Below are positions 34,229-63,262 of a stretch of DNA of 64,000 nucleotides, one piece after another. Each line of letters starts with the position of its first letter. Within the stretch, counting starts at the first letter, position 1. This DNA is from Salvelinus alpinus (Eukaryota; Chordata; Actinopteri; Salmoniformes; Salmonidae): NCBI RefSeq assembly GCF_045679555.1, contig NC_092120.1, positions 9,661,805 to 9,725,804 on the forward strand, in the 5' to 3' direction. The translations under genes were made by a program, and so were the position numbers. The notes under the pieces were generated by a model. The model had not been told where the DNA came from, searched no databases, and saw only the letters and a list, made by a program, of their open reading frames with translations.

Positions 34229-35189
34229 CTGAAGGGATGGTGAGGCATCAGCAGTAGAGTAAACCTTCCACCTAGTCTAGAAGGCTAACTGGAGTTTCTG
34301 CCATATTGGTTAACACCTTTCCAGTCATTCCAGACTGCTGAGGGAGCGTCAACGAAGAATTAGGAATAGACACAGGAGATCAGTTTTGAATTGCAGCCGT
34401 CTCCTCCTCCCCATCCTCAGCCCTCCTCATCCTCCTCCTCGTTGGAGGAGAGTGACCTGAGACCTGGGGAATGGTGGTCTAGTGCCTCCTGCTGGACGTG
34501 TTGAATAGCCACAATGCAGGTGAGGAGGGTGTAGTTCAACATGGCGCCCAGGGCCACCAGGACTGACAGCAGCAGCTGCTTGCGCCTCTTACCAGGCTCG
34601 TTATCAGCGTCACCCCCTTCAGGCTGGGAGGACACCTTGCGACTAAAACCTTCTGCACAAAAGATAAACAAGAAAAAGTGTGAGACATAATTCAAAAGTT
34701 AAACAACAATAGCAAGTTATATAATAGATATCATTGAAGACAATATCATACTGCATGTACAGTATGTTATGTGGTCCTACACCTCATCCCTCACTGGGGA
34801 AGTAGACCGCCAGGATGTTGGAGCAGAAGTGGCTCAGTTATCCAGTGACTTGAGGTGCTGCTGGAGTCTTCCATTGGGCAGTTTCATCTTCAGGATGGGC
34901 ACCAAGTAGCCAAATACAAAAGCATCCAGAGATGAAGGTCTGGAGGGAACAGTGTCATGTAGTTAGAGATGCATAGGGATGCCATGCAAGTGAATTAAGT
35001 TGAGGTGCTGAATTCCCAGTTTAATGTATTGAGGTAGAACTTCTCTGTGTGGACTTGCGAGTCTCCGAAGAAGAACTTGTTTGAGCCCAGCCACTGCGAG
35101 AGAAGGTTCATATACTCCATAGCATTGCGGTACAGCTGGAGAGAGAAAGGTGTTGACAAACCGACATCAGGCCAAATTCCCCAAAATTT

Positions 35190-35430
35190 TGAATCATGAT
35201 ATATTCCTTATTATAAACTGGGTGATTCAAGTCCTGAATGCTGATTGGCTGACAGCTGTTGTATATCAGACCGTATACCATGGGTATGACAAAACATGTA
35301 TTTTTACTGCTCTAATTACGTTGGTAACCAGTTTATAATAGCAATAAGGCACCTCGGGGGTTTGTGATACATGGCCAATATACCACAGCTAAGGGCTGTG
35401 TCCAGGCACTCCATGTTGCATCGTGCTTAA
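35190..35430. mobile_element. Short dispersed repeat in a metaxin intron
   Basis: Contains GATTGGCTGACAGCTGTTGT, ACGTTGGTAACCAGTTTATA and GGCCAATATACCACAGCTAA, a combination I recognise from a high-copy salmonid non-autonomous repeat. The family's class is uncertain. No coding capacity. Confidence 0.55.
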
Positions 35431-35431
35431 G

Positions 35432-36180
35432 AACCAGTGACGGATTGAGGCATAGGCGACATGGGCAGCCGCCCAGGGCGGCATCTTGCCTGGGGTGGCA
35501 TGGGGAATCCGGACAATTTTCAAAAAAATTAAAACAATTAAAAGTTCCGAATGGTGACATTTGCGCAATTGGTTTTCTATCGCTCATTTGCAATTCACGT
35601 AAATTATATCATGTCACCGTGTGGCACTGTGGGTCAATTAACCTTGTCGGAGTGGGCGCCCTGATTCTAGTTTGTGAGCTAGGCAGGCTACTTACTGCCT
35701 GGGAAGGTCTCACACACAGAAGTACGAGATGGGGAGGGGACGGGGGTAGGTTAACCTCAGGTTTCCCCACTGGAAGCCCGAGGTAGGGGGAGCGGGGCAA
35801 TCTATCAAATAACGCACCTCTAACTTTGTACAGTACTAATGCAATTAGTAATGCATTTAGTTGTGCAATTTAGTTTGTGTGTTTCTTGTTTGAAGTGCAA
35901 TAGTGTAATAATCAGCTTCTCTTCTTCATAAGTGTATAATTCTATTTGTATGATATAGGATTTGTGCAATTTAGTTTTATTTGTGTGTTTTTTGTTAGCA
36001 ATAGGGTAATAGTGTAATAATGAAATTCTCTTTTTTATTTGTATTTAAATGCTACAATTTGTTTCTATTTGTCTCTGTTACTTCTTTTTGATATTTATGA
36101 GTCTTATTTTTGTATATATATTCATATAGTTTTAAATGTTATGATTATTTATTTGTGTTGTTCCAAATGTCTGAATAAAA
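35432..36180. mobile_element. Dispersed repeat next to the previous one
   Basis: Begins GTGACGGATTGAGGC with GCCGCCCAGGGCGGCATC and ends in AT-rich TGTGCAATTTAGTTT and TGAATAAAAATTAC segments. It matches my memory of a multi-copy salmonid repeat; boundaries are approximate and the class is unknown. Confidence 0.45.
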
Positions 36181-39100: not shown

Positions 39101-39818
39101 GGCAGAGGAAAGCCATTGGTGAAGAGAGGGAAGACATTAAGTCTGGAAAGTAAGAATCAAGAAAAACATACTATACAGATGGAGAAATAATGTAGTAAAA
39201 GAGAAAGGAATAACAAATAAGAACAAAGTGAAATGAAGGAGCTATTTTCTGCCCATATTATAGAGAGCACATTTTCCTTCCATTCCATTTATTAGTCTCC
39301 CTGTGTTCCCTTTGATTATAGGAGAATATGCCTATTTCTGAAGTGAATTAATGCAGCCATGTTTCTCGAGTTGAGACAACAAAAAATTAAAGGATCTAAA
39401 AACGAAAGACAAGACATCTTACCAGTGGGACTTCTCCAGGGGTTGCCGATCTTGTGAAGTTTGCAAACTTTGCATAAGCCTGAAGTAAAGGGAGACGATT
39501 AACAGATTAACGCTGAGCTAAAACATGTTGAGCCAGACATACCTTAGTTTCCACAGCCTTGTATAATTATATATATATTTTTAAACAGGCCAAATACCCC
39601 AGGAAGCATCCGAGCTGGGCCCAAAATAATTCCACTAACATAAAGGGAGGGGTAGGGAGGCATTAACACCTCAATTAAGGCAGACCCTTAGGACCCAATA
39701 GACAGTGTGTAAAAACAAACAGCAAGCATCTAAACAACATGACTGTGGGATAGGCTGCCTAACTCTAGACACCACAGACACCAGGCTATACTCGATAACC
39801 TTTAGCACCACAGCAAAG

Positions 39819-39993
39819 TCTGGCCTACCCCGGCCAAACCCTAACCCGACGACGCTGGGCCAATTGTGCGCCGCCCTATGGGACTCCCAATCTCAGCCGG
39901 TTGTGATACAGCCTGGAATAAAAACCAGGGTCTGTAGTGATGCCTATACCACAGATGCAGTGCCTTAGACCGCTGCGTCACTCAGGAACCCCA
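39819..39993 (-). mobile_element. tRNA-derived SINE
   Basis: On the minus strand it starts GTTCCTGAGTGACGCAGCGG, resembling a tRNA A-box region, followed by the degenerate B-box region and the body GGGAGTCCCATAGGGCGGCG common to salmonid SINEs. About 175 bp, in metaxin intron 1. Confidence 0.75.
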
Positions 39994-40502
39994 AAGACAA
40001 AACACCCGGAACAAAAAAAAGGATGAAATTAAAGGTTGACACTAGGAATGAGACATTGAGCCTTCTGAAAAGGATAGGAAAAAAAACTTTGCGCAGTTGC
40101 AATTAATTATATATAATCAAATAAAATAATAAATTATTTGTAAAAACCTGTCCCTAATCCGTGTGGACGGATATAAACATCGGTAGATGTAACAATGTAC
40201 AGTTGAAGTCGGAAGTTTACATACACTTAGGTTGGAGTTATTAAAACTCGTTTTTCAACCATTCCACAAATGTCTTTTTAACAAACTATAGTTTTGGCAA
40301 GTCGGTTAGGACATCTACTTTGTGCATGACACAAGTAATTTTCCCAACAATTGTTAACAGACAGATTATTTCACTGCATCACAATTCCAGTGGGTCAGAA
40401 CTTCACATACACTAAGTTGACTGTGCCTTTAAACAGCTTGGGAAAATCCAGAAAATTATGTCATGGCTTTAGAAGCTTCTGATAGGCTAATTGACATAAT
40501 TT

Positions 40503-41692
40503 CAAATCAAATCCAATTTATTTGTCACATACACATGGTTAGCAGATGTTAATGCGAGTGTAGCGAAATGCTTGTGCTTCTAGTTCCGACCATGCAGTAA
40601 TATCTAACAAGTAATATAACCTAACAATTTCACAACAACTACCTTATACACACAAGTGTAAAGGAATGAATTGTCACGTCCGTCGTAAGGAGGAGGAGAC
40701 CAAGGCGCAGCGTGATATGAATACATCTTCTTTAATATACGAAGAACACTAAACAAACTAACAAAATCAACGTGAAGCTATAATAACTGAGTGCTGACAT
40801 GCAACTACACATAGACAATAACCCACCAAAACCTAAATGGAAAATGGCAACATAAATAGGATCCCCAATCAGAGACAACGATAAACAGCTGTCTCTGATT
40901 GGGAACCAATTCAGGCCACCATAGACCTACAATATGCCTAGACAAACGAACACCCCTAGACATACAAAAACCCTAGACAGGACAAACAAGCATACCCACC
41001 CTCGTCACACCCTGGCCTGACCAAAATAATACAGAAAACATAGATAACTAAGCTCAGGGCGTGACATGAATACGAATATGTACATAAAAATATATGAATG
41101 AGTGATGCCCGAACAGCATAGGCAAGATGCAGTAGATGGTATAGAGTACAGTATATACATATGAGATGAGTAATGTAGGGTATGAAAACATTATATAAAG
41201 TGGCATTGTTTAAAGTGGCTAGTGATACATTTAATTACATCAAGATGGCAAGATGCAGTAGATGGTATAGCGTACAGTGTATACATATGAAATGAGTAAT
41301 GTAGGGTATGTAAGCATTATATAAAGTGGCTAGTGATAAATTGATTACATCAATTTTTCCATTATTAAAGTGGCTAGAGTTGAGTCAGTATGTTGGCAGC
41401 AGCCACTCAATGTTAGTGATGGCTGTTTAACAGTCTGATGGCCTTGAGATAGAAGCTGTTTTTCAGTCTCTCGGTCCTCGCTTTGATGCACCTGTACTGA
41501 CCTCGCCTTCTGGATGATAGCGGGGTGAACAGGCAGTGGCTCGGGTGGTTGTTGTTCTTGATGATCTTTTTGGCCTTCCTGTTATATCGGGTGGTGTAGG
41601 TGTCCTGGAGGGCAGGTAGTTTGCACCCGGTGATGCGTTGTGCAGACCTCACTACCCTCTGGAGAGCCTTACGGTTATGGGCGGCAACTGCT
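40503..41692. mobile_element. Unclassified salmonid repeat inserted in the Tc1 element
   Basis: Begins near CAAATCAAATCCAATTTATT and ends near CTTACGGTTATGGGCGGC. The TATACATATGAGATGAGTAA segment (around 41155) recurs in diverged form near 41281. Its position splits the Tc1 sequence between TTGACATAATTT and GAGTCAATTGGAGG, which are adjacent in intact copies as I remember them. Confidence 0.7.
40672..41066 (-). mobile_element. Solo LTR-like element, copy 2
   Basis: 395 bp from TGTCACGTCC to GGCGTGACA, flanked by an exact 5-bp duplication TGAAT (40667-40671 and 41067-41071). TG...CA termini plus a 5-bp duplication are the signature of an LTR left by recombination. The element includes an internal hairpin (AATCAGAGACAACG ... 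CTGTCTCTGATT). Read on the minus strand, it has a promoter-like middle and an ATTAAAGAAG motif towards its end. Homologous to 6179-6558. Confidence 0.8.
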
Positions 41693-42590
41693 TTGAGTCA
41701 ATTGGAGGTGTACCTGTGGATGTAGACCTCAGACAAAAAAAATGTAGACCTCCACAAGTCTGGTTCATCCTTGGGAGCAATTTCCAAACGCCTGAAGGTA
41801 CCACATTCATCTGTACAAACAATAGTACGCAAGTATTAACACCATGGGACCACGCAGCCGTCATACCGCTCAGGAAGGAGACTGTTCTGTCCCCTAGAGA
41901 TCAACGCACTTTGGTGCGAAAAGTGCCAATCAATCCCAGAACATCAGCAAGGAAGAAGCCACTGCTCCAGAACCGCCATAAAAAAAGCCAGACTACCGTT
42001 TGCAACTGCACATGGGGACAAAATTCTTACTTTTTGGAGAAATGTCCTCTGGTCTGATGAAACAAAAATAGAACTGTTTGGTCATAATGACCATCGTTAT
42101 GTTTGGAGGAAAAAGGGGAGGCTTGTAAGCCAAAGAACACCATCCCAACCGTGAAGAATGGGGGTGGTAGCATCATGTTGTGGGGGTGCTTTCTGCAGGA
42201 GGGACTGGTGCACTTCACAAAATAGATGGCATCATGAGGTAGGAAAATGATGTGGCTATATTGAAGCAACATCTCAAGACATCAGTCAGGAAGTTAAAGC
42301 TTGGTCGCAACTGTGTCTTCCAATTGGACAATGATCCCAAGCATACTTCCAAAGTTGTGGCAAAATGGCTTAAGGACAACAAAGTCAAGGTATTGGAGTG
42401 GCAATCACAAAGCCCTGACCTCAAACCTATAGAAAATGTGTGGGCAGAACTGAAAAAGTGTGTGCAAGCAAAGAGGCCTACAAACCTGACTCAGTTACAC
42501 CAGCTCTGTCAGGAGGAATGGGCCAAAATTCACCCAAATTATTGTCGGAAGCTACCCGAAACATTTGACCCAAGTTAAACAATTTAAAGG
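41683..42590 (+). pseudogene. Tc1-like transposase pseudogene with deletions
   Basis: Recognisable blocks: an N-terminal DNA-binding part (GSNFQTPEGTTFICTNNSTQ, about 41773-41830, degraded), the catalytic block SSGLMKQK in a shifted frame near 42050, and a well-kept C-terminal part (42252-42578) with QLDNDPKHTSKVV and PDLKPIENVWAELKK. Frame changes and missing internal sequence between about 41935 and 41950 break it. Confidence 0.85.
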
Positions 42591-42817
42591 CAATGCTACC
42601 AAATACTAATTGAGTGTATGTAAACTTCTGACCCACTGGGAATGTGATGAAATAAATAAAAGCTGAAATAAATCATTCTCTCTACTATTATTCTGACATT
42701 TCACATTCTTAAAATTAAGTGGTGATCCTAACTGACCCAAGACAGGGAATTTTTATTAGAATTTAATGTCAGGGATTGTGAAAAACTGAGTTTAAATGTA
42801 TTTGGCTATGGTGTATG

Positions 42818-43170
42818 TGTCAGAGTCTATCTAAAAGATAGTGAAGGAGTCAGGCGCAGGACACAGGTAAGAGTAACAATCACTGATTTAATCAATCCAA
42901 AATGTAACAAAATCCCGTTCCAAACAAGGACAAAACACGACTCAAAATACAACACACCGGAACACAAGAAAGACAATCACGCACAAAACAGAAAGGGAAA
43001 CCAGAGGGTTAAATAAGGAACATAATTATGAGATGGGAACCAGGTGTATAAACAGACAAAACAAAAGAAAAAATGAAACATGGATCGGTGGCGGCTAGAA
43101 AGCCGGTGACGTTGACCGCCGAACACCGCCCGAACAAGGAGAGGGAACAACTTCGGTGGAAGTCGTGACA
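42818..43170 (-). mobile_element. LTR-like element, different family
   Basis: 353 bp from TGTCAGAGTC to AGTCGTGACA, flanked by an exact 5-bp duplication GTATG (42813-42817 and 43171-43175). It has the same TG...CA terminal style as the two copies above but an unrelated interior. It interrupts the right inverted repeat of the surrounding Tc1 element, so it arrived later. Confidence 0.8.
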
Positions 43171-43195
43171 GTATGTAAACTTCCGACTTCAACTG

Positions 43196-45189
43196 TAGAT
43201 TGCAGATTATTTTTATCAATGGGGTGGGCATTTCTTGCTTTAGACTGTTCGGATGGAGATTATGGAAGAAAGGATGTGGAGCCTGCCCTGCCTGAAAGAG
43301 TCCTGGAGCATGCAGTGTGATTAGGCAAGGGAAGGGGAGTGGCGGGTAGCTGTGCCAGTTGTGATGTAACAAACGGTTCCTGAAGAGATAAATAACCTGT
43401 AAGGAGATTGAAAAAGTAGAAGGAACGCAGTAAAATACCAGAGTAAAAAGGCTTGTGAAGGAGAAACTTCAATAGGTCTAATAGAAACGGATTAGATGTC
43501 TAAACATAGCCTACATTCTCAAACTAAGACCAGTGCCAAGTTTCACAAATCACTTCTTACACAAAAACTTAAGCTTTTAAGAAAAAAAGTGCAATTCCTC
43601 AACAATATCTTAAGATTTAATGATTTTCTTACAAACTTCTCAAATATCTTCTGAATCTTCTTAAAATGTTTGTTGCTAGGCAACTAATTTAGCTAGCTAT
43701 CTAGCCAGCAATGGCAATCATGTTAGCATAATTCGTACTGAGATTACTGTTCTAAAACATGTTTTGGGGTTTAAAATAATCAATACAGAAACTTTCAGAT
43801 GAAGTTTGTTAGTGAATTAAACATGTTCAATTGCTTTCATGAACTTATTCTCTCACTGCCCAGAGTTTAGGACAAGGGTTTAGCTATGTTGGAATTAAGA
43901 AAAAATCCAATAACTTTATTTTCAAGAATCTAATTTCTTCTTAACTTTTTGCTTAAGGAAGAAACATAAGAAATAGAGCAAGAACATTTCCAATAAGATT
44001 TTTTAGGAATAGCAACCTTGCTTGACTTTCTTCATAAATCTAGAGTTGTGGAAAAAATGGCAGTTAAGAAGAAATGTCTTCTTAAGAAGGTTGTGTCAAT
44101 CTGGGCCCAGGTCACCATTCATGGAATGGTCCTGCATTTCTGCTTACTGTGTCCTGCACTCACAAGGAAAGTCATATTCCAGAATGAAATAAGCAAACAG
44201 TATTCGACTGCATTAATATGCCTTCCAATGGATCTCAAAGCAATTGTTGTATTGCAGTAGACTTGATACAAAGTAGCCTAAAGACACATTGCACTATAGA
44301 TTGACAAGGCAAATGCACAGCAACATTTATGATTGTGTATGGCTGATAGATAGCTATACATAAAATTACATTCCTATAAATGTGTTTTGGCAGAGTTGAA
44401 CAGATCGACCTGACTATGCTTGCAGACAGGCGTGACGGGACGTCATTTCATGGAAAAGAAGAGGTAATTCCTTCCACAGTGTCCGCAAGTACTTACAAAC
44501 CCCACTTTCAGCTGGCCCCAGGGCATTGAGAATGGCCTTATTGCTTTAATGTATCCTACAATCATCAAAACCAATAACACACCTAAAATAATTTAGATAC
44601 AGTCATTCAATACATTTTACCTCAGAAGACATATAATCATGTAATTTAGGGTCTGCCCACAACAATGACAAACTGATCATGTCACAATCACAAACAGACA
44701 TTTGTAAGAAGTCAAGTACAGTACACAACCATAGCTTACTTAGAGTGTACAATGTACAGCAATAGTATCAACATTGGGCCTGGTGCTCCACTGTGAAGGA
44801 CAGATCTCACTTCAGATTGAAAGAAAAACTCATTCAAGAAGGCAGAACTAGATCTTCAATAATGGAATAGCCAGTCAAAGTTAAGAGGGCGAAATGGAGA
44901 GAAGCTGTCCGCTGTTGGCCAAAGTTACCCAACCAGTTGGAAAAATGTCATTAAACACATCAAAAGCTGACATCATGGCTACGACTTTATTAGGAAATTC
45001 CTCCTCAACTTTTTATCTTTGGTCGTAAACCGAAGACTAGCTAGACTGAAAATAAAACATTAATTTATTCATACCTACCCTACAGGTCTAAAAGACATAA
45101 ATAATATATTGGTAAGCCTATACAGATATGTAGCCTAGGTGTAGGCCTAGCTAGAATGAATAAGTGTGCATACTGCATACCATAACACA
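43196..45189. other. Metaxin intron 1 sequence without a recognised gene
   Basis: Contains a stretch rich in CTTCTTAAGAA-like motifs (about 43545-44100) that may be an older repeat, and otherwise AT-rich unique-looking sequence. No exon found. Confidence 0.4.
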
Positions 45190-45688
45190 CACACATATAA
45201 AACATAAGGAACACCTGCTCTTTCCATGACAAACTGACCAGGTGAATCCAGGTGAAAGCTATGATCACCTGTTAAATCCAATTTAAAATCAGTGAAGGGG
45301 AGGAGATCAGTGAAATAATGATGTTTAAGCCTTGAGACATGGATAGTGTATGTGTGCCATTCAGAGGGTGAATGGGCAAGACAAACTATTGAAGTGCCTT
45401 TGAACGGGGTATGGTAGTAGGTGCCAGGCACACCGGTTTGAGTGTCATGAACTGCAACACTGCTCGATACAACAGTTTCCAATGTGTATCGAGAATGGTC
45501 CCCAACCCAAAGGACATCCAGCCAACTTGACAACTGTGGGAAGCATTGGAGTCAACATGTGCCAGCATCCCTGTGGAACGCTTTCGACACCTTGTAGTCC
45601 ATGCCCCGACGAATTGAGACTGTTCTGAGGGAGAAAGGGCTGAAACTCAATATTAGGAAGGTGTTTTTAATGTTTTGTACACTCAGTG
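45190..45688. mobile_element. Short Tc1-like derivative
   Basis: The right end GTTTTGTACACTCAGTG is followed by TA; the left end (ATAAAACATAAGGAACACCT) is its degraded inverted copy. The interior includes a piece reading like transposase on the minus strand but with no complete domain. Confidence 0.6.
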
Positions 45689-45699
45689 TATATACTATA

Positions 45700-45915
45700 C
45701 AGTGCATTCGGGAAAGTATTCAGACCCCTTCACTTTTCCACATTTTGTTACGTTACAGCCTTATTCTAAAGTGGATTAAATAGAAACATTTCCTCAACAG
45801 TCTACACACAATACCCCATAATGACAAAGTGAAAAAAGTTTTTTTGAAATGTTCGCAAATGTATTTAAAATAAAAAAACAGAATGACCTTATTTACATAA
45901 GTATTCAGACCCCAC
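45700..45915. mobile_element. Detached terminal repeat of the Tc1 family at 4765-6680
   Basis: Begins CAGTGCATTCGGGAAAGTAT after TA and continues through CACATTTTGTTACGTTACAG and ACACAATACCCCATAATGAC, then stops without a body. It is the end region of the same family as 4765-6680. Confidence 0.75.
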
Positions 45916-46068
45916 CGTCCTCTCCTCTGCATGAGAGACTGCAAACAGGTGTTCGTAATTGAGTGCTAGCCTACACTGCACTGCCAATCATTTTTTACAT
46001 CATTGCTTGATAAAACAGAGCAACACACTTCTCATCTGAGGTAAAGAGAGACACTCCTCTTCTAGATA

Positions 46069-47690
46069 CAGTGGGGAGAACAAGTATTTGATACACTGCA
46101 GATTTTGCAGGTTTTCCTACTTACAAAGCATGTAGAGGTCTGTAATTTTTATCATAGGTACACTTAAACTGTGAGAGACGGAATCTAAAACAAAAATCCA
46201 GAAAATCACATTGTATGATTTTTAAGTAATTAATTTGCATTTTATTGCATGACATAAGTATTTGATCACCTACCAACCAGTAAGAATTCCGGCTCTCACA
46301 GACCTGTTAGTTTTTCTTTAAGAAGCCCTCCTGTTCTCCACTCATTACCTGTATTAACTGCACCTGTTTGAACTCGTTACCTGTATAAAAGACACCTGTC
46401 CACACACTCAATCAAACAGACTCCAACCTCTCCACAATGGCCAAGACCAGAGAGCTGTGTAAGGACATCAGGGATAAAATTGTAGACCTGCACAAGGCTG
46501 GGATGGGCTACAGGACAATAGGCAAGCAGCTTGGTGAGAAGGCAACAACTATTGGCGCAATTATTAGAAAATGGAAGAAGTTCAAGATGACGGTCAATCA
46601 CCCTCGGTCTGGGGCTCCTTGCAAGATCTCACCTCGTGGGGCATCAATGATCATGAGGAAGGTGAGGGATCAGCCCAGAACTACACGGCAGGACCTGGTC
46701 AATGACCTGAAGAGAGCTGGGACCACAGTCTCAAAGAAAACCATTATTAACACACTACGCCGTCATGGATTAAAATCCTGCAGCGCACGCAAGGTCCCCC
46801 TGCTCAAGCCAGCGCATGTCCAGGCCCGTCTGAAGTTTGCCAATGACCATCTGGATGATCCAGAGGAGGAATGGGAGAAGGTCATGTGGTCTGATGAGAC
46901 AAAAATAAAGCTTTTTGGTCTAAACTCCACTCGCCATGTTTGGAGGAAGAAGAAGGATGAGTACAACCCCAAGAACACCATCCCAACTGTGAAGCATGGA
47001 GGTGGAAACATCATTCTTTGGGGATGCTTTTCTGCAAAGGGGACAGGACGACTGCACCGTATTGAGGGGAGGATGGATGGGGCCATGTATCGCAAGATCT
47101 TGGCCAACAACCTCCTTCCCTCAGTAAGAGCATTGAAGATGGGTCGTGGCTGGGTCTTCCAGCATGACAATGACCCGAAACACACAGCCAGGGCAACTAA
47201 GGAGTGGCTCCGTAAGAAGCATCTCAAGGTCCTGGAGTGGCCTAGCCAGTCTCCAGACCTGAACTCAATAGAAAATCTTTGGAGGGAGCTGAAAGTCCGT
47301 ATTGCCCAGCGACAGCCCCGAAACCTGAAGGATCTGGAGAAGGTCTGTATGGAGGAGTGGGCCAAAATCCCTGCTGCAGTGTGTGCAAACCTGGTCAAGA
47401 ACTACAGGAAACGTATGATCTCTGTAATTGCAAACAAAGGTTTCTGTACCAAATATTAAGTTCTGCTTTTCTGATGTATCAAATACTTATGTCATGCAAT
47501 AAAATGCAAATTAATTACTTAAAAATCATACAATGTGATTTTCTGGATTTTTGTCTCTCACAGTTTGTCTCTCACAGTCGTCTCTCACAGTTGAAGTGTA
47601 CCTATGATAAAAATTACAGACCTCTACATGCTTTGTAAGTAAGAAAACCTGCAAAATCGGCAGTGTATCAAATACTTGTTCTCCCCACTG
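46069..47690 (+). mobile_element. Full-length Tc1-like transposon
   Basis: Ends CAGTGGGGAGAACAAGTATT and AATACTTGTTCTCCCCACTG are exact inverted repeats, bordered by TA on both sides (46067-46068 and 47691-47692). Longer inverted regions (about 200 bp each, with a conserved block near AAAATCCAGAAAATCACA on the left) resemble the IR/DR layout of Sleeping Beauty-type elements. The right inner repeat has a small CTCTCACAGT triplication at about 47553-47592. The 1622-bp body holds an unbroken transposase frame, making it the best-preserved DNA transposon in the window. Confidence 0.95.
46437..47459 (+). CDS. Intact Tc1-like transposase, 340 aa
   Basis: DDE transposase that would cut and paste the surrounding element. 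The length of 340 aa is full size for the family. Paired helix-turn-helix DNA-binding motifs occupy about residues 1-110 (the second around [18 protein letters not shown]). The catalytic core shows D in [13 protein letters not shown] in [12 protein letters not shown] and E in SIENLWREL, with 34 residues between the second and third, the DD34E pattern. A glycine-rich box ([15 protein letters not shown]) is present. There is no stop or frameshift. It starts at ATG following CCTCTCCACA. It lies in metaxin intron 1 on the opposite strand. Whether it is active cannot be told from sequence. Confidence 0.93.
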
Positions 47691-47825
47691 TATGTATGAA
47701 TGCCACTTGCCTGTAGTAGAAAGACATGGTAGGCTACTACTGAATTTGTTTAACAAATAAGAGGGCTACCAGTGGATGGGTATCACAAGACTAGGGTTAG
47801 GCTAAGGGCAATTCCACAGTAAAAG

Positions 47826-48003
47826 AGTGATGCTGTGACTCAGATTTTTCACTTTAAAATGTATGCCAAACTTTGCATCTGCACTGTTCTTCAAGTTAAT
47901 GTGTTTTTGTATTGTTAAAAGTAGTCCCTGTGTATAGAGTTGTATGGTTTGTTAAACTTTGACCTACATTTTAAAGTGAAAAAATCTGAGTCTCAGCATC
48001 AGT
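47826..48003. mobile_element. MITE-like inverted-repeat element
   Basis: The left arm AGTGATGCTGTGACTCAGAT...CACTTTAAAATGTA and right arm TACATTTTAAAGTG...CAGCATCAGT are inverted repeats over nearly 40 bp with few mismatches, enclosing about 100 bp. No coding capacity; superfamily not assigned. Confidence 0.65.
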
Positions 48004-49322
48004 CTGTTACTAACTAAACATCAATCTCTTACATGATTTTCCAATTAACTATGCTTACTATGATAATTAGACTAGCCATTGGCAATAACATATGCTATAA
48101 ACATAGGCTAATCCAGCAGTAACCATCAAGTAGATATGCTAATGATTTAATTTTTAAGTAACTCAAAAATATAGATTTCTTTTTTTTTTATCTGGAGGGT
48201 TCTCTAATTCACTTTTGCAATTACCTAATAGGTGGAATGTACAGACCTCTAGCCTAAATGCAGTGACATTTTGCCAGTTCACTAATGGAAAGAATGAGGT
48301 CTCTGAATGTGACACATCATCAGACACAAATCTACCCAGTTGCAGTGAAAACCCGGGGGGCATCCTGGAAAACTCTGAATGAAATTGCTCATTTCCAAAC
48401 AAGAGTTTGTCCAAGAGTATGATGTGTCACTAACATGGCTGCAGTTCAATAGCAAATTTGTGGTTTTAGAGACGACACTGAGACACAAACTAAAAGCAAG
48501 CAAGATGTGCATTTTCCAACCACCAAAAAAAGTATCAGGGGAGGAAAGTCACTTTCCAGACCCACATTTAACATCTTGTTCCCTCCAGTAAGATGTGGGT
48601 CCAAAATATACATGTTTTAAAAAAATGGGTTAATGTCTGAAAATTTGCCAGGGAGGAAAAGGTAGCTTATGATGCTCAAGGCTGGTTTACTCAAGCCTGC
48701 AAGGTATTATAAGCTGTCATATGTGGCTTGTGAACACATGAGTCATTTAACTGAACATGCACAATGGAAATGTTGTGGTTTACTGTAATATAATAGATTT
48801 TTTGGGTGGCCTTGTATTAAGAGCAAACCAAATGGAACATTATTAGAGGTTTTACATTGGAAGAATGTTCAGCTAAATCAAAAACACTGCTTCCAGTCAG
48901 ATACGTACAACACAATGTTTGGGTTTTGTATACATGGGTACCATGAGAACTGTACCATGACGGGCATACCTGGAATTTCCTGTAAGAAACTGAGGGGGGA
49001 GCTAAAGCCAGTTACAGTTGCCTCTGATGCAGTGTAGCGAGAGACTTGGAGTTAGCTAATAAAGCCATATCCCATAAAAGCTGTGTATAGAGAGGTACAT
49101 GTAAGACAAAAGGCACCAGACAATAGCCTTAAGAATAGCCTTATCTTCGCTCCAGATGTCTTCCAAGATTGCACACTGCACAGATTCCTTCATTACTTCC
49201 TCTTCATTTGTCAACTTCAGGGCTATAACGTTGGGAGGGTAGCCGAACACCTGCATGGTCTGTGTGGTTAATCATGTGTTAAGCTATGCTGCATTCCTAT
49301 GTTGAATTTATGGATTATGATT
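48004..49322. other. Intronic sequence, nothing recognised
   Basis: AT-rich sequence in metaxin intron 1 without an identifiable exon or repeat. Open frames here (for example 48379-48591) lack similarity I can recognise. Confidence 0.4.
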
Positions 49323-50802
49323 AGAGGTCTGGCCGATTAATTTGTGCCGATTTCAAGTTTTCATAATAATCGGTAATCTGCCTTTTGGATGCCGATTATG
49401 GCCGATTACATTGAAATCCACGAGGAGACTGCGTGGCAGGCTGACCACCTGTTACACGAGTGCAGCATCAAAAGGACCTTGTGGCTGCAAGGAGCCAAGG
49501 TAATTGCTAGCTAGCATTAAACTTATCTTATAAAAAAACAATTAATCTTCACATAATCACTAGCTAACTACACATGGTTGATGATATTACTAGGTTAACT
49601 AGCTTGTTCTGCGTTGCAGATAATCAATGTGGTGCCTGTTAATTTATCATCGAATCACAGCCTACTTCAACTTCGCCAAATGGGTGATGACTTATCAAAA
49701 GCGCATACGCGAAAAAAGCACAATCGTTGCAATAATGTATCTAACCATAAACATCAATGCCTTTCATAAAATCAATACACAAGTATATTTTTTTAAACCT
49801 ACATATGTAGTTAAAAGAAATTCATGTTAGCAGGCAATATTAACTAGGGAAATTGTGTCACTTCTCTTGTGTTCAGTGCAAGCAGAGTCTGTATATGCAG
49901 CAGTTTCGGCCGGCTGGCTCATTGCAAACTGTTGAAAGGCCATTGATTACTAACAAAGACCGTAATTCATTTGCCAGATTTTTACATAATTATGACATAA
50001 CATTGAAGGTTGTGCAATGTAATAGTAATATTTAGACTTATAAATACGGAACGGTTCCGTATTTCACTGAAAGAATAAACGTTTTGTTTTCGAAATTATA
50101 GTTTCTGGATTTTACCATATTAATGACCAAAGGCTCGTATTTCTGTGTGTTTATTATGTTATAATTAAGTATAGGATTTGATACTTGATAGAGCAGTCTG
50201 ACTGAGCAGTGGTAGGCAGCAGCATGCTCGTAAGCATTCATTCAAACAGCAGCTCTTAGCAATGCTTGCAGCACAGCGCTGTTTATGACTTCAAGCATAT
50301 CAACTCCCGAGATTAGGCTGGCAATACTAAAGTGCCTATAAGAACATCCAATAGTCAAAGGTATATGAAATACAAATGGTATAGAGAGAAACAGTCCTAT
50401 AATTCCTATAATAACTACAACCTAAAACTTCTTAACTGGGAATATTGAAGACTCATGTTAAAAGGAACCACCAGCTTTCATATGTTCTCATGTTCTGAGC
50501 AAGGAACTTAAACGTTAGCTTTTTTACATGGCACATATTGCACTTTTACTTTCTTCTCCAACACTGTGTTTTTGTATTATTTAAATCAAATTGAACATTT
50601 CATTATTTATTTGAGACTAAATTGATTTTATTTATGTATTATATTAAGTTAAAATAAGTGTTCATTGTTCATTCAGTATTGTTGTAATTATAATTTATTA
50701 CAAATATTTATATAAACGTCGGCCGATTAATCGCTATCGGATTTTTTTGGTCCTCCAATAATCGGTATCGGCGTTGAAAAAACATAATCGGTCGACTTCT
50801 AA
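49323..50802. mobile_element. hAT-like non-autonomous element
   Basis: Ends AGAGGTCTGGCCGATTAA and ATAATCGGTCGACTTCTAA are imperfect inverted repeats rich in CCGATTA-type motifs, and the 8-mer TTATGATT borders both sides (49315-49322 and 50803-50810), matching hAT target duplications. About 1.48 kb with no transposase frame. I recognise the family as common in salmonids. Confidence 0.75.
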
Positions 50803-50954
50803 TTATGATTGTAATGTTCATAATTCATGATTGACAGGTAATCAATCATATGTTCAAACATTTGGCACCAGTAGTTAGGGATAGCCTAGATTACAGGTTA
50901 TAAACTCTCAAGTCCAGATCCTAATAATTACAAACAATTGATTCCCATTCAAAA

Positions 50955-51095
50955 TCCTATTTTCCATAACCCTTAACCTCAAACCCTAATTGTAACCATA
51001 ACCCTAAACCTATCCCCTAAGACTAAAATAGCCTTTTTCCTTGTGGGGACAGGCAAAATGTCCCAACTTCTGGTCCCCACAAGGATAGTAAAACC
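50955..51095. mobile_element. Second copy of the element at 1440-1650
   Basis: Shares TTTTTCCTTGTGGGGA, AAATGTCCC and the right end CCACAAGGATAGTAAAACC with the first copy, including the CTAACC-like internal run in reduced form. Confidence 0.6.
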
Positions 51096-51109
51096 AAAAA
51101 CACTCACAC

Positions 51110-52570
51110 CAGTAGTGGTCGGTGCAGTTTAGGATTAGAGAGGACTGTCATTACTATTCCATTCACACAGCTCAATGTAACATTGATAGGTTTAGGCTAC
51201 TACATGATACAAAGATGTGCCCTACACCCATCGTTGCTACAACCTAGACTACAAATGAACGTTTATAACGTAGGTGTACAGGCTGAGAGACAAATTGGAG
51301 TACTCAAGGTGAAAGACAGTGACACATTCAATACCACCTGGAACAATCTTGGCTGTATCTAGCTGATCTGGGGTTTAATCATTAGTCCAAACAGTTTCTA
51401 TTTGACCAATTCAGGTAGGTCCATCCCCGTTTCGTTCCGTTTAAGAAACGTTTTGCAACAGAAATCGGTGGAATGAATACACCCCTGATCACCCGCAGAC
51501 ATGGTTCACTTTCATAGCAGCGCCATACAGCATCATCACTTTGCTCATTGAATAAATCCTTCTCGCATCTACACGGTCTCCTCCTCTCTCCTTTTCCATT
51601 CACTTGTGGACTTCAGTGCACAACACAACATCGGTCTGTGACCAGGCAAAAAAAAACTCTACAAGCCAAACCGTCATACCATAATTGCTAACGCTAACCC
51701 CTACACAGCCTACATCGTTGTCACCATATCAGTTAACGTCATAGTCAACATAGCTACTAGAACTAACACGTTAGTAAACCCACAATCCAATCCATGTGTA
51801 CAATCACACAGTCCAGTGAACAGCAAGCAGTTTAGCAGTTACACCGACGGGCTCGGTGGCAATAAATTAATAAAACCAAAAGCTTACCTTGACTAGGATA
51901 GCCTTAGCTAGCTAGCTAACATAAAAATAGCATTCCTCTCTGTTTGAGTCAGGTTGTTGAGTATGCTAAATTAGCTGCATTAGCTAGCTAGCTAAGTAAG
52001 TGAAAGGTAAACAAACTAGATTCATTCTCTGATCCTTTGATTGGATAGACAACATGTCAGTTCATGCTGCAAGAGATTTGATAGGTTGGAGAACGTCCTC
52101 TGGAAGTCATTATAATTACTGTGTAAGTCTATGAATGTGGGTGAGAACCATGAGCCTAAGGCTTAAATTGAAGTCCATGTACCCAGAGGAGGACAGAAAC
52201 TACGTGTCCTCCGGCTACACCATGGGGCTACCCTAGAGGGTACTGTTAAGGCTACTGTAGAACTTAATTGCAAAACACTGTTTTAATCAGTTATTTGGTG
52301 ACATGTGAATATATTTAGTATAGTTTTATCATCTAAAAAGGATAACTTTTTTAAATGTTTCACTATTTGTATTTTTCTGAAATTCACTGAGTAGGATGGT
52401 TCTCCCCTTCCTCCTCTGAGTAGCCTTCACTGAGACACACACAAAGGCAGGTAGAGGGAAGGGTTACTGTACTTACAGCTGTTTAACTACACCTGCTTGT
52501 TTGCATTGATTGAGGTTAGCTAAATACATTCAATTATCTACATTCTTTTGAGATGCTGCTTACATAGGAC
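51110..52570. repeat. Probable dispersed repeat
   Basis: Segments such as GATTGGATAGACAACATGTC and CCTCCGGCTACACCATGG (52041-52230), and the part around 51420-51600, match my memory of multi-copy salmonid sequence. No terminal repeats were identified and boundaries are approximate. Confidence 0.35.
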
Positions 52571-53056
52571 GCCGCTACAGTAACGGGTCGATAGCGACAA
52601 TTTTTTAATTGTCTGAAAGGTTAACAGTGTCTGAAAGGGGTATAAGTTAGCCAGATAGCCAGCCGTAGATGTTAATGTAACAATGTTCACCTTGCAATGC
52701 AATTACATGGTAACGGCCCATATAACGATAACTATCATGCAAATATACTAATCGTTACCGGTAGTTACGGTGAAATGTTTATTACAAATAGCTAGACAAC
52801 TAACGTTAACGTTGATAGATAGCCACGTCAGTGAGATATGTGATGTCCAAGCCAACGTCATGAGCATTGACATTAGCTTGCAACTGAATATGAAGGCAAC
52901 CAAGCTGTGCTATCTTGCAGTGTTGTTATTGCTGGAATTACAGCATAATTGATATTTTACCAATACAATTAAACACTCAGTGTCGACAGACGGCAAATCC
53001 CAATCGCTTTCCCAGCAGTACAGCTCAGAGGTTGCAATCTGCGAGGGGGCAGCCAT

Positions 53057-58021: not shown

Positions 58022-61000
58022 ATGGAGAAAACACCATTCAAATTTGGGATTATTCTTACTTTGGCTGTTTCAGGTATGACAGAAAACGTCTATCTATCTA
58101 TCGATCTATCGATCTATCTATCTACTCTTCCATGCATCTTCATTTATTGATTATACTAAAATATGTAGACTATAACACATTTACACATTACATTTCTTTA
58201 GAGACTTCTGTTGTAGGGCAGTGATTCCCAACAAGGGGTACTAGGACCCCTGGAGGTACTAGGCCTATCCACAGAGTGTACTTGAGAAGACTCATGAGAC
58301 CATAGGCCTACTGGTAAAATGCACATGAGGGGGTACTTCAGGGCTACTCCGGGCAGAGCAAAATTCTGTTGGTGAAACAGTAACCCAAAAAGGTTGGGAA
58401 CCACTGTTGCATGGGAAGCATTGTTGTACTGTAACCTACACTTCTTAGACGTGGGAGTCAGATTGGGGTTTAATTGTTAATGTGACAATCAACAGGACCG
58501 AAAACATATGCTAAACAGGTCTGTAAAAATTATGGCATCTCATGCATTACCTGAAGCCTGCTTTTATTCAGGCTATGATTGTAAACTGAGAATGGTGTCG
58601 CATCCCTCCATTAGAGTTCCAGACACTAGTAGAATCTATGCCAAGGTGCATTGAAGCTGTCCTGGCTCGTGGTGGCCCAAAACCCTATTAAGACACTTTA
58701 TGTTGGTTTTTCCTTTATTTTGTCAGTTACCTGTATCTAAGTAAATCATACTATGAGGTTTACGGAGAGTAAAACCTTATCAGCACACAACCAGAATACC
58801 ACTTTTTCATGATTCTCTTGTCCCTGGCTGCTCAGGACTTTTTGATGACATTTTGCCTTGTTATTTTTTTTAACTTTAAATTGCTTCCTCAGGTGCCTCA
58901 AGTGATATCAATTTACTGGAGTTAAAACCTACATTGAGAATATTTTTAAATCTTAGCCAAACATCTATCATAATTTGTCATAATCTGTCATAATGTATAA
59001 AGTGTCTTCAGGGTTATGCAGTAGCAGAATAGTATTATGGATTTACAATCAACCCCACTCAATCAAATATTGGGATAAGACAAAACAACTTCTTTCCCAC
59101 GCTGAGAAAACACCCCCTTTCAACTCAAAGTGTCTGTTTACAGATAATCATTTCCACAGTACAAGGCATCCTTTATTGGCTGTAATTTGCACTTCAATCA
59201 GTCAGTCTCTAAGGGTAATGGCAGTAATTTATTAGATGGCTGTGTAACAGTATTTCTGCTAATTTCAGAATTTCGGCTTGTTTTCCATTCACCGTTACAG
59301 CACTCCTTTTCTTTGATGATGTTGTGCCTGCTTCCCATTTACGGAGGGCAACACCCAGCAGCAACGACAAGACCACCCCAGCTACGCTGTCCGCCTACTA
59401 CATATGCGTCAGAATCACCAACCGGATTTACACTGAGTCACTCAATAATCAAAGCTCTAAGGAGTACAAACAGCTGAGGAAACAGGTGGAGCAGATGGTA
59501 AGAGTGTGTTTTTTTACTGCTCAAGTCAGTCCATAGAGCTTCAACTCATCACTCAGTCTATACCCACAAAATAACTCTTTGTCCTGGAGATACTTCATGT
59601 TTGCCAACAAAATGGAAATGCTCCATGGCATTTCCATTGTTTTGGTCAAGTTCCATTGACGTCTTTACTGCATTTATACCAAGCAACCATTGCGAGTGTA
59701 CCCATGAGTTTACCAGTCAAATTGCCAGAGTTAGATGTTCCCAAGGCTGTTCTATTCACTATTTTCTTTGTCACCAACATCATCAGCTCTCCAACACCTA
59801 GCAGTGAGCACTATTTTAACAGTCAACAACAAAATGAGCCATCACTACTAGCTCACACTCCAGTTGACCCACTCCACTACACCATAGACAATGATACTAT
59901 AGACACCTCCCTTACAACCTGTTACTCAATATTCAAACAAGGAAAGGTGTGAAGACATGCCTTGTAGGATAATATTAAAGTGCTCCTCTGATTGCTGTGT
60001 CTTTTTCAGGTGGATGACGTCCACAGCCCTTTGCCAGAGTCTGACAAATATATGGGTGTATTTGATATAATTTTCAGGTGAGCTCTAATGTTGAATTTAA
60101 AATTCTGCCATTGAAAAAAAATTGCATTCTTAAGGACATTGACAATTATACGTTAGAATTATTTTTGACTACTGGTCTCACTCTTGCAGTAATGGATCCG
60201 TCATTGCAAACTCGACAGTAATGTTTGGGACTACATTCATGATCACTCCAACTTTGGTTAAAAGTCTATTTTCCACTCATATCCAATCAAATAAATCCAA
60301 AGCCCTTGACCTGGACCGCGTCTATACTGAAGGTAAAGAAGATGGCAACCTTCTCTACTTCTGCTTTGTAGCAGCCTGATTCATTTGTATGTTTCAAAAA
60401 ACTGTATTGTAAATAGCTTAAGAAACTGTTATTAAGTAAAATAAAGCAGGAATCACAAATATGTTCTTTATTCCTTAGGTCAACTTCCAATAAAAGCCAC
60501 ACTACCTCTTGTAGCACGTACCACAGCAACCGCAGCTGCCTTAGTTAGTACCCTCACAAACACCACCACTAGTCCTGACAAAAACAATACAATTAGCAAC
60601 ATAACCACCCCTAGTCCTGAAGACCATAACAGTACAATTAGCAACATAACCACCCCTATTCCTGGAGACCATAACACTACAATTAGCAACATAACCACCC
60701 CTAGTCCTGAAGACCATAACAGTACAATTAGCAACATAACCACCCCTATTCCTGGAGACCATAACACTACAATTAGCAACATAACCACCCATATTCCTGG
60801 AGACCATAACACTACAATTAGCAACATAACCACCCCTAGTCCTGAAGACCATAACAGTACAATTAGCAACATAACCACCCATATTCCTGGAGACCATAAC
60901 ACTACAATTAGCAACATAACCACCCATATTCCTGGAGACCATAACACTACAATTAGCAACATAACCACCCGTATTCCTGGAGACCATAACACTACAACTA

Positions 61001-63262
61001 GCAACATAACCACCCTTAGTCCTGTAGACCATAACACTACAACTAGCAACATAACCACCCGTATTCCTGGAGACCATAACACTACAACTAGCAACATAAC
61101 CACCCCTTCTCCTGGAGACCATAACACTACAATTAGCAACATAACCACCCCTGCTCCTAGAGACCATAACATAACAATTAGCAACATAACCACCCCTATT
61201 CCTGGAGACCATAACAATACAATTAGCAACACAGCTAACCCTATTACCCATAAAAATCCTCCCCAGACCATTAGCACGACTGTCTTTCGTAAAACCTTTG
61301 CCCCTACTGAGAGAGCAACAAGCAGGTATAAGACCACAGAGCATGCTGCAGCTGTAGTTGCTGGGGCCGGAGAGGAAGTCCCAGGATGGGGGATCGCTCT
61401 ATTGGTACTGGCTGCCCTGATCTTGTTAATCCTCCTTATTCTCCTAATACTTCTGGTGAGTACAAAAACAAAAACAAATGCAAAAACAAATTCTCCCTGA
61501 ATGCATTGTTGACCTCCATTTTCTCAGAAACAGCCACAACCCTGCTCTAACAGTTACAGTATGTCATGCTAAGGAGGCCATTTTACTATGATTCTTGTCT
61601 TTTCTTGACCTTCAGCTAGTGTGGTTGTGCTGTAGGCAGAGATATGGAAGCTTCAGCCCATATAACCAGATCAACCACGGGGCAGACATCCAAATGTACT
61701 CCACACACAGCCGCTTCAACGTGCCCAACGGCAAGCCTAATGTAAGTCCTATGTCTTGGCAGAGAGGCCAGATAGACACACACACACAGGCTCAGATTCT
61801 GCATTCAGCAGATTGGCTATGGTTACTAAGACTGGGCGCTATGCCTCAGTGTTAGATAGACGTCTCTTTGTGCCGTTCCGGCTTTGACCAGGGAAACCTG
61901 AGGCGTGGGAAACACTAGCCTTCCCCTCTACCCTCTCAGCCGAACTACCCCTGCAGCTTCCAGAGAGGGGTCCCAAGCCATACTCCTCCCCCCAAGCCAC
62001 CTATATTCATTGATGCACTAAGTTGCTTATCTCCAAAATCAAACCCCCACATAAGCAGATGTTCTTGGTAGACCAGACAACCAATTTAAAGCAATCATCT
62101 GTGAGCTGTGAGTTTATAGCTTTAATTCTGCCTTGGGTACGTATGAGGGATGATACCAGAGTTATCGTCCAAGGACCTTCCTGTATGGGGCATGTTACTC
62201 ATCAATGTCACTTTGAATGACTGGCAACACCATGATTTGACTGAAAAAAGGCAGTGTTTATTCTGGACATCAAAAATATATATTTTCGATTGAGCTTTGA
62301 AAGGGATGCTAAATACAAATGCCATGGGATCTACCAACGTCAGAGAGAGAGAGAGATCTCTCCCTTAACACCAAACAAAGAGACCATTGACTGTACTAAT
62401 GAGACTTGCATGTTCGTCACACTGCAGTGCACACCTCAAGCACACACACACCTGAGAGGAAGGGAAGTGAGGAGGGAATCTACTCAGGCTTTTTCTGGTG
62501 TTGATATGTAGCGTCATAGATATTTTTTTAGTTTTGGAAATGTACAGTTTGAGTTAGATTACACTGTATATTGCTTATATTCAATCTACTGTATAAGGAT
62601 ATTGTTGTGTGTTTGTGTTTATGCACTTCATATAATTGTGCTACATTTACGTAGATATATTTTTAAATTCTGTGTTCCTGCTAGCAGTGGTTTGAACATG
62701 TTTGTTATGTTGTTTTGGAAAGGGGACAGTGGAAGACATTGGATGACTATTTGTTCACAGCCTCCAACTCTCCTTGATCAATTTATTGAGCATAGTCGTT
62801 CCATACTAGTCTGCCAACATTTGCTCCGAGACTGACTATCATATAATGAGAAGAGTGCCCCCTCTGTCACCTGTCTCTATGGCAACAGAGCAGCAGACAG
62901 ACACATTGTAATCCACAACCACTCTGTTCTCTTTACATAACCTTCTCCCAAAGCCCTTTTAATTGATGAATCACCGGTTTGATTTATTGTTGCAATTAAG
63001 CCGAGTGGATGTCTTTCAGGCTTAGTTAACTAAGGCTTTAAAACAGACGAACGTCTGCAAGATAAGCTAACATTGCAGTTCTATACAACAGGTCAAAAAC
63101 AGACTGCAAAATTCAGTTTTGCCTGATAAATGATATTGTGTGCAGTATCATCTTCACAGACTGTTTTACACCTTTGATGAGCTGATACTTTCTCTGATAC
63201 AGGACGAAATGGGAGAACCATCGAAAAACCAAACAGGGATGTATGTGGTGAACGAGTACTGA
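58022..63262 (+). CDS. muc1: MUC1-like membrane mucin with SEA domain
   Basis: Predicted cell-surface mucin, 540 aa. Exons: 58022-58073, 59301-59497, 60010-60077, 60190-60332, 60479-61455, 61616-61741, 63203-63262; the sum is 1623 nt, in frame, GT-AG throughout. Signal peptide about 1-23; SEA domain about 50-153, with YKQLRKQVEQM and NGSVIANSTV, where G108-S109 matches the G|SV self-cleavage site of MUC1; fourteen 15-residue repeats (194-403); Thr-rich stem; membrane segment about 457-484 starting VPGWGIALLVL, which is the human MUC1 sequence at this point; tail of about 55 residues beginning CCRQRYG and containing YSTHSRFNVPNG, comparable with the MUC1 CQCRRKNYG and YHTHGRYVPP parts. The THBS3-MTX1 neighbourhood supports orthology. 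Oddity: the repeats follow the SEA domain instead of preceding it. A general SEA mucin unrelated to MUC1 is the alternative. Confidence 0.85.
58089..58124. repeat. (TCTA)n microsatellite in mucin intron 1
   Basis: Tetranucleotide TCTA/ATCG-variant run starting 16 bp after the exon 1 donor. Simple repeat without inferred function. Confidence 0.9.
58219..58406. mobile_element. hAT-like MITE in mucin intron 1
   Basis: Inverted ends CAGTGATTCCCAAC and GTTGGGAACCACTG (one mismatch) enclose 160 bp. The flanking 8-mers TTGTAGGG and TTGCATGG share six of eight positions, consistent with a degraded hAT target duplication. Confidence 0.75.
60598..61227 (+). repeat. Coding tandem array, fourteen 45-bp units
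   Basis: Fourteen units of exactly 45 bp inside mucin exon 5, preceded by a degenerate 39-bp unit (60559-60597). Consensus NITTPIPGDHNTTIS. The first four units alternate between SPEDHNST and IPGDHNTT versions, pointing to a 90-bp duplication step. Every unit has two N-x-S/T sites. The absence of stops on the opposite strand creates two long minus-strand open frames that are shadows. Confidence 0.95.

What the first reader, a model, noticed from the sequence alone, without database searches (positions are those of the whole stretch)
58022..63262. A fish MUC1-like gene at the MUC1 locus with its domains in swapped order
Seen: signal peptide, SEA domain, tandem repeats, then a membrane segment starting with the MUC1 motif VPGWGIALLVL. 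Known: mammalian MUC1 neighbours THBS3 and MTX1 and carries its repeats outside the SEA domain. Here the repeats lie between the SEA domain and the membrane. If the SEA domain is cleaved, the glycosylated stalk would stay attached to the cell, the reverse of mammalian MUC1. From memory, MUC1 has been described mainly from mammals, so a syntenic fish relative would bear on its origin; I could not check this.
Basis: partly seen in the sequence, partly recalled or inferred. Interest (0 to 1): 0.85.

Follow-up and report, generated by a model that had tools for sequence, protein, structure and literature searches.

The report
Fish MUC1 relative, mucin stalk reversed
A fish gene beside metaxin-1 looks like the fish counterpart of the human cell-surface mucin MUC1, but its sugar-bearing repeats lie between the SEA domain and the membrane instead of outside it, and related copies in the same genome share this layout, so it bears on how MUC1 arose.

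Summary
Window 58022-63262 (+) encodes 540 aa in seven GT-AG exons: signal peptide, SEA domain (Pfam E 2.1e-8) with the motif GSVI, 14.7 copies of a 45-bp repeat, a membrane segment opening with VPGWGIALLVL (11 of 11 as in human MUC1) and a short tail. No mucin-like exon was found between signal peptide and SEA. Three more genes of this genome have SEA, repeats, membrane in the same order: a collinear copy on C4 and two diverged genes on C29 and C26 (exon 1 of the last not found); modelled intron phases agree, repeat units do not. mtx1 sequence lies on the opposite strand upstream of all four. A profile of the fish genes matches human MUC1 in SEA (36.6 bits) and membrane segment (27.4), 0 of 5000 shuffles each; the tail alone is weak (124 of 5000). 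Best reading: the teleost MUC1 counterpart with its mucin stalk on the membrane side of SEA, a layout that probably predates the teleost genome duplication (inferred). Cleavage, expression and reciprocal best match are untested. New variant of a known kind.

The parts
58022..58073 (+). Exon 1, signal peptide (MEKTPFKFGIILTLAVS), ends in phase 1
   Evidence: same exon 15 of 17 residues on C4 (88%)
59301..59497 (+). Exon 2, end of signal peptide, short linker, first part of SEA domain; ends in phase 0
   Evidence: Pfam SEA 50-135; C4 copy 89%
60010..60077 (+). Exon 3, SEA domain; ends in phase 2
   Evidence: C4 copy 91%
60190..60332 (+). Exon 4, SEA domain with GSVI motif; ends in phase 1
   Evidence: motif present in the five SEA copies examined
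60194..60199 (+). Codons of Gly108-Ser109, the expected SEA self-cleavage bond; Asn107-Gly-Ser is also an N-glycosylation sequon
   Evidence: position computed; sequon list; cleavage itself inferred
60479..61455 (+). Exon 5, linker, repeat stalk and most of the membrane segment; ends in phase 0
60583..61245 (+). 45-bp tandem array (15-aa unit NITTPIPGDHNTTIS), 14.7 copies; 28 N-glycosylation sequons in 14 units
   Evidence: TRF; sequons
61378..61455 (+). Membrane segment starting VPGWGIALLVL (continues into exon 6)
   Evidence: human letters in PMC4534190
61616..61741 (+). Exon 6, LVWLCCRQRYGSF..., start of cytoplasmic tail; phase 0 to phase 0
   Evidence: C4 copy 98%
63203..63262 (+). Exon 7, end of tail, stop codon
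   Evidence: C4 copy 89%
34450..53056 (-). mtx1 (metaxin-1), 5' end facing the MUC1-like gene
   Evidence: tblastn with recalled human MTX1; joined window pieces 56% to recalled MTX1, 46% to recalled MTX3
13578..19746 (-). thbs3, type 3 repeats and C-terminal domain; further 5' exons not mapped
   Evidence: Pfam TSP_3; tblastn with a recalled COMP C-terminus; called thbs3, not thbs4, because its neighbour is mtx1

Best explanation
This is the teleost counterpart of the MUC1 gene, in reversed topology. The protein enters the secretory pathway through its signal peptide; the SEA domain folds and probably cuts itself at Gly108-Ser109, as in MUC1 (motif kept; cutting inferred). The SEA domain would then sit as a small two-piece cap at the outer end of a stalk of about 300 residues, with 28 N-glycosylation sequons in the repeats and many Ser/Thr, anchored by a MUC1-type membrane segment with a short tail. 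If the cap came apart, only about 80 residues would be lost and the glycosylated stalk would stay on the cell, the reverse of mammalian MUC1, where the repeat-bearing subunit is the part that can leave (inferred). The order SEA, repeats, membrane is shared by two diverged gene pairs near mtx1, so it probably dates from before the teleost genome duplication (inferred from the paired loci; no tree was made).
For: Gene model and domains. SEA: fish profile against the human MUC1 SEA 36.6 bits, 0 of 5000 shuffles reach it, best shuffle 12.3; the typed human SEA letters match PDB chains of 2acm, 6bsb and 6bsc. Membrane segment 27.4 bits, 0 of 5000; membrane plus tail 41.3 bits against 12.8 and 10.5 for recalled MUC16 and MUC17 pieces. 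Single-gene test: SEA score 79, 0 of 20000 shuffles. Locus: mtx1 and a thrombospondin in the window, the cluster that holds MUC1 in human and mouse (PMC1464143 passages). Order SEA-repeats-membrane in 4 of 4 copies that have the repeat exon (B1 without exon 1; a fifth copy, B2, lacks the repeat and membrane exons). Intron phases 1,0,2,1,0,0 in A, A' and B; the five introns modelled in B1 agree. mtx1 sequence on the opposite strand upstream of 4 of 4. A and A' are both open over the full length.
Against: Cytoplasmic tail alone: profile 3.4 bits, reached by 124 of 5000 shuffles; single gene 142 of 20000; CQC and YTNP of human MUC1 are absent. With residues 1-165 as query, PDB shows a transmembrane-protease SEA (2e7v, E 0.017) and no MUC1, whose PDB chains are split at the cut; with the four-gene profile that protease scores 26.5 bits (E 5.3e-5) and the MUC1 N-terminal half 21.6 (E 0.0017). 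The membrane/tail part alone finds photosystem PsbH chains in PDB (best E 0.0088) that share VPGWG by chance, so that short motif is not unique to MUC1. Gene order and strand differ from human. A versus A' shows dN/dS 1.04 in SEA, 0.87 in membrane plus tail, 0.47 in the tail, on few changes: no clear purifying selection. B1 exon 1 was not found; in B and B1 several in-frame acceptors fit exon 5. No transcript, no proteome-wide reciprocal search, no other fish species.
Confidence: 0.78

Rival explanations
1. It is a separate, fish-specific SEA membrane glycoprotein that arose beside mtx1 and resembles MUC1 only in SEA and membrane segment; not the MUC1 counterpart.
For: Tail alone barely exceeds shuffles; a protease SEA domain ranks above the split MUC1 chains in PDB; VPGWG also occurs in unrelated PsbH; gene order differs from mammals (against PMC1464143).
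Against: VPGWGIALLVL identical over 11 residues and the only strong match in 64 kb; membrane plus tail 41.3 bits against 12.8 and 10.5 for recalled MUC16 and MUC17; unsplit MUC1 SEA 36.6 bits; mtx1 sequence near all four copies.
Confidence: 0.15
2. Gene-model or assembly artefact: a mucin exon between signal peptide and SEA is missing or collapsed, and the protein has repeats on both sides or on the mammalian side.
For: Mucin repeats are often hard to assemble (PMC9578598 passage); no transcripts were available; 5 kb upstream of B1 exon 2 holds one 40-codon frame with 0.475 Ser+Thr+Pro.
Against: In intron 1 the richest stop-free 40-codon frame has 0.325 Ser+Thr+Pro in A, 0.30 in A' and 0.35 in B, against 0.575-0.775 in the four exon 5 sequences; in A's intron 1 TRF shows only a TCTA microsatellite and a 3-copy 10-bp array. 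Four loci agree on SEA before repeats.
Confidence: 0.05
3. MUC1 counterpart with this order, but the SEA domain does not cut itself and serves only as an adhesive or sensing head on a glycan stalk.
For: Asn107-Gly-Ser makes the expected cut site a glycosylation sequon in A, A', B1 and B2; some SEA domains are not cut (recalled).
Against: GSVIAN is kept in 5 of 5 SEA copies examined although the SEA domain otherwise falls to 36-37% identity.
Confidence: 0.3

Closest known systems
Mammalian MUC1
   Same: Signal peptide, one SEA domain with GSV(V/I), VPGWGIALLVL membrane start, basic juxtamembrane stretch followed by YG, mtx1 and thbs3 in the neighbourhood
   Different: Repeats between SEA and membrane instead of outside SEA; repeat unit rich in N-glycosylation sequons; CC instead of CQC; no YHPM or YTNP; gene next to mtx1 on the opposite strand
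MUC1-like protein of Fugu rubripes and weak chicken Muc1 candidate (PMC1552070, passages); quail MUC1-like LOC107317569 (PMC11283604, passages)
   Same: Non-mammalian genes already called MUC1-like or MUC1-related
   Different: The chicken candidate has PTS before SEA and no membrane segment was found; for Fugu and quail the passages give no layout or locus, so identity with this gene could not be judged
MUC16 and MUC17
   Same: Membrane mucins with SEA domains
   Different: Recalled MUC16 and MUC17 membrane parts score 12.8 and 10.5 bits against 41.3 for MUC1; MUC13, MUC3 and MUC12 were not compared
Transmembrane-protease SEA domains (PDB 2e7v, 8vis)
   Same: SEA domain, 26.5 bits for 2e7v with the fish profile
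   Different: Proteases without a mucin stalk (recalled)

Membership tests
MUC1 | Single SEA domain related to that of MUC1 | tested here: met
   36.6 bits, 0 of 5000 shuffles. In PDB one protease SEA passes E 1e-3 and the split MUC1 half reaches only 0.0017; no full human proteome compared
MUC1 | GSVV-type cleavage motif in SEA | tested here: met
   GSVI in 5 of 5 SEA copies examined
MUC1 | Self-cleavage and non-covalent subunits | not testable with these tools
   needs expression
MUC1 | PTS repeat domain on the N-terminal side of SEA | tested here: not met
   repeats C-terminal of SEA in 4 of 4 genes that have them; no Ser/Thr/Pro-rich frame in intron 1 of A, A', B
MUC1 | VPGWGIALLVL membrane segment | tested here: met
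   11 of 11 in the window gene; VPEWGITLLIL in A', VPGWAIALLVL in B and B1
MUC1 | Cytoplasmic tail with CQC, YHPM, YEKV, YTNP | tested here: not met
   motifs (PMC4534190, PMC5039420) absent from the tails; tail alone reached by 124 of 5000 shuffles
MUC1 | Neighbourhood of THBS3 and MTX1 | tested here: met
   order and strand differ from mammals
MUC1 | Same intron positions in SEA and membrane exons as the human gene | not tested
   human exon borders only recalled; no human genomic record at hand
MUC1 | Reciprocal best match between fish and human proteomes | not testable with these tools
   no vertebrate proteome in the tools

The most novel reading that the evidence does not exclude
The mucin domain of MUC1 is not ancestral. 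The old gene beside mtx1 was signal peptide, SEA, membrane segment, tail; fish gained glycosylated repeats on the membrane side of SEA, inside the membrane exon, and mammals gained them as a separate exon on the outer side. The two lineages thus built the same kind of mucin with opposite shedding behaviour.
Probability: 0.45. Interest if true: 0.75.

Novelty: new variant of a known kind. Interest (0 to 1): 0.62.

Why it matters
The MUC1 cytoplasmic domain has been called restricted to mammals (PMC4534190, passage). A fish gene with the MUC1 membrane segment and SEA domain beside mtx1 would move the origin of the gene back to the common ancestor of bony vertebrates. Its reversed layout would make the role of SEA cleavage testable: whether cutting serves to shed the mucin or to sense force or ligand, since a fish protein that cannot shed its stalk by this cut separates the two.

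Tried and rejected
Missed upstream mucin exon: scanned in the window gene and three paralogues; nothing convincing, one frame of 0.475 upstream of B1 left open. Metaxin-3/THBS4 locus instead of MTX1/THBS3: joined window metaxin pieces score 242 bits for recalled MTX1 and 204 for recalled MTX3. Tail evidence as independent proof: dropped, too weak. Selection: A versus A' dN/dS 1.04 in SEA; B versus B1 SEA dN 0.219, dS 0.119, Fisher p 0.06 with approximated site totals; not claimed as positive selection. Within-array changes: 1 synonymous, 27 non-synonymous, but copies are not independent. Pfam scans of read-through frames: 1-13.5 kb of the window, six frames, transposase only; 53-57.9 kb, six frames, nothing at E 0.01; L018 plus strand, transposase; L031 and L032 minus strand, one reverse-transcriptase match. 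L019-L023 and the other strands were not scanned with Pfam. Recalled KRTCAP2, DPM3, SLC50A1, EFNA1, GBA1 and FDPS gave no match in the window and L015-L034, so no further neighbour of human MUC1 was found. The viral, metagenome and prokaryote collections were not scanned, since they hold no fish. Whole-genome searches for the membrane/tail part and for thbs3 did not complete.
Full report
What is there. Seven exons on the + strand, 58022-63262, each intron with GT-AG borders, give a 540-residue protein. It has a hydrophobic signal peptide that forms across the exon 1/2 join (read by eye), an SEA domain (Pfam E 2.1e-8, residues 50-135), a 45-bp tandem array of 14.7 copies with no indels, a membrane segment beginning VPGWGIALLVL at residue 454, and 61 residues from exon 6 on. 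The SEA domain carries GSVI where human MUC1 has GSVV. Between residues 29 and 453 there are 34 N-glycosylation sequons, 28 of them in 14 repeat units; Ser plus Thr make up 35% of residues 179-451.

Is it MUC1-like beyond chance. The human membrane segment, with the letters printed in PMC4534190 (passages), was searched in six frames of the window: exon 5 gives E 2.3e-7 and the next best 0.11. The human SEA and tail as separate DNA searches gave no strong match; the SEA is split over three exons. At protein level the SEA domain aligned with human MUC1 scores 79, against a best of 61 in 20000 shuffles; the tail scores 40, reached by 142 of 20000. With a four-gene fish profile the human SEA scores 36.6 bits and the membrane segment 27.4, each above all 5000 shuffles; the tail alone scores 3.4 bits and is reached by 124 of 5000. 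Recalled MUC16 and MUC17 membrane parts score 12.8 and 10.5 against 41.3 for MUC1. In PDB the SEA profile finds a transmembrane protease (2e7v) at 26.5 bits and the N-terminal half of MUC1 at 21.6; PDB lists MUC1 SEA as two cut chains. The membrane and tail part alone finds PsbH chains that share VPGWG, best E 0.0088. So SEA and membrane segment speak for MUC1, the tail hardly does.

The locus. The window holds thrombospondin exons on the minus strand and mtx1 on the minus strand from 53056 down to about 34450. Human and mouse MUC1 lie in a cluster with THBS3 and MTX1, and fish TSP-3 loci are called syntenic with it on at least two adjacent genes (PMC1464143, passages; its figure, which may or may not show MUC1 in fish, is not held). 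Here the order is thbs3, mtx1, an Ig-like gene, then the MUC1-like gene, which faces mtx1. The neighbourhood is shared; order and strand are not.

The same genome holds more. The window lies in contig C35 of a 2.37-Gb genome. The SEA query gave 15 matches at E up to 10: 3 in the window gene A, 3 in a copy A' on C4, 2 in a gene B on C29, 4 in two copies B1 and B2 on C26, and 3 weak ones on C31, C10 and C9 that were not followed. A' is collinear with the window over mtx1, the Ig-like gene and the MUC1-like gene, most blocks at about 83-97% DNA identity (list cut at 60 rows), and encodes 715 residues with a 20.9-copy array of 45 bp in the same place. B encodes 608 residues with 25.4 copies of a 24-bp unit. 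B1 has 19.7 copies of another 45-bp unit; its exon 1 was not found. B2 keeps SEA exons; repeat and membrane exons were not found in it. Intron phases are 1,0,2,1,0,0 in A, A' and B, and the five introns modelled in B1 agree; for exon 5 of B and B1 several in-frame acceptors were possible and one was chosen. SEA identity of A to A', B and B1 is 90, 37 and 36%, yet GSVIAN is kept in the five copies examined.

Dating. The mtx1 start lies about 5.0 kb from the start codon of A, 5.7 kb from A' and 10.6 kb from B, on the opposite strand. On C26 several mtx1 exons lie on the strand opposite to B1, some 24 kb upstream, but exon 1 was not found there, and a genome search with one mtx1 exon found C35, C4, C29, C5 and C19, not C26. 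Two diverged gene pairs, each near its own mtx1, are what a duplication of the whole locus would leave; zebrafish TSP-3a and TSP-3b are described as arising by duplication of this locus (PMC1464143).

Position and turnover of the repeats. In the four genes the repeats lie in the exon that also begins the membrane segment. Their units differ between A, B and B1 while exon phases, cleavage motif and membrane segment stay alike. The richest stop-free 40-codon frame in intron 1 has 0.325, 0.30 and 0.35 Ser+Thr+Pro in A, A' and B, against 0.575 to 0.775 in exon 5; 5 kb upstream of B1 exon 2 reaches 0.475. From memory, the human gene carries its repeats in exon 2, between the signal-peptide exon and the SEA exons, with SEA, membrane and tail borders at the same phases as here; this could not be checked.

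How it would work. Shown: order of parts, motif, sequons, membrane segment. Inferred: SEA cuts at Gly108-Ser109 and the two pieces stay together; the piece that can leave is about 80 residues (signal cut placed by eye near residue 28); the glycosylated stalk remains on the cell. In MUC1 the repeat-bearing subunit is on the outer side of the cut. Asn107-Gly-Ser makes the expected cut site a sequon in A, A', B1 and B2 but not in B, which has Arg-Gly-Ser.

What is known. PMC4534190 states that the MUC1 cytoplasmic domain is restricted to mammals (passage). PMC1552070 lists a MUC1-like protein in Fugu and a doubtful chicken candidate with PTS before SEA (passages); PMC11283604 measures a gene annotated MUC1-like in quail (passages). 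So non-mammalian MUC1-like genes have been named before. Papers on sea trout and sea bream mucins name other membrane mucins, and no Muc1 gene of this layout, in the passages seen. In the listings (some capped) I saw no title or abstract start that reports this gene; the letters VPGWGIALLVL occur in one held paper, PMC4534190. The library lacks most subscription journals, and two papers looked up were not held. Of the 15 papers opened I saw passages only.

Verdict. Since the N-terminal repeat domain and the tail motifs of mammalian MUC1 were tested and not met, I do not file it as MUC1 itself but as the probable fish counterpart with a different layout: a new variant of a known kind.

Noticed in passing
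window 55351-56140, minus strand: Ig V-like and C1-like exons between mtx1 and the MUC1-like gene (V-set E 1.2e-3, C1-set 0.01, both under Pfam's cut-off; best PDB hits are antibody chains, E 5e-5); 92-93% conserved on C4, no good match in L016-L030.
   Followed up: partly
L026, about 6785-7651, minus strand (C26:16.04M): Truncated copy B2: SEA exons kept, repeat and membrane exons not found, last-exon sequence close behind; perhaps a pseudogene or a secreted form.
   Followed up: partly
L028 and L024/L025 SEA exons: Between B and B1 the SEA domain has dN 0.219 and dS 0.119 while 28 membrane residues do not differ; a hint of fast outer-domain evolution, not significant.
   Followed up: partly
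window 60191-60199: The expected SEA cut site overlaps an N-glycosylation sequon (Asn-Gly-Ser).
   Followed up: no
window about 5100-6000 and 46389-47459: Tc1/mariner-type transposase sequences; the second has an open frame of 356 codons.
   Followed up: no
L034, 1390-9999 (C26): mtx1 exons upstream of B1 with changed residues and no exon 1 found; this metaxin copy may be decaying.
   Followed up: no
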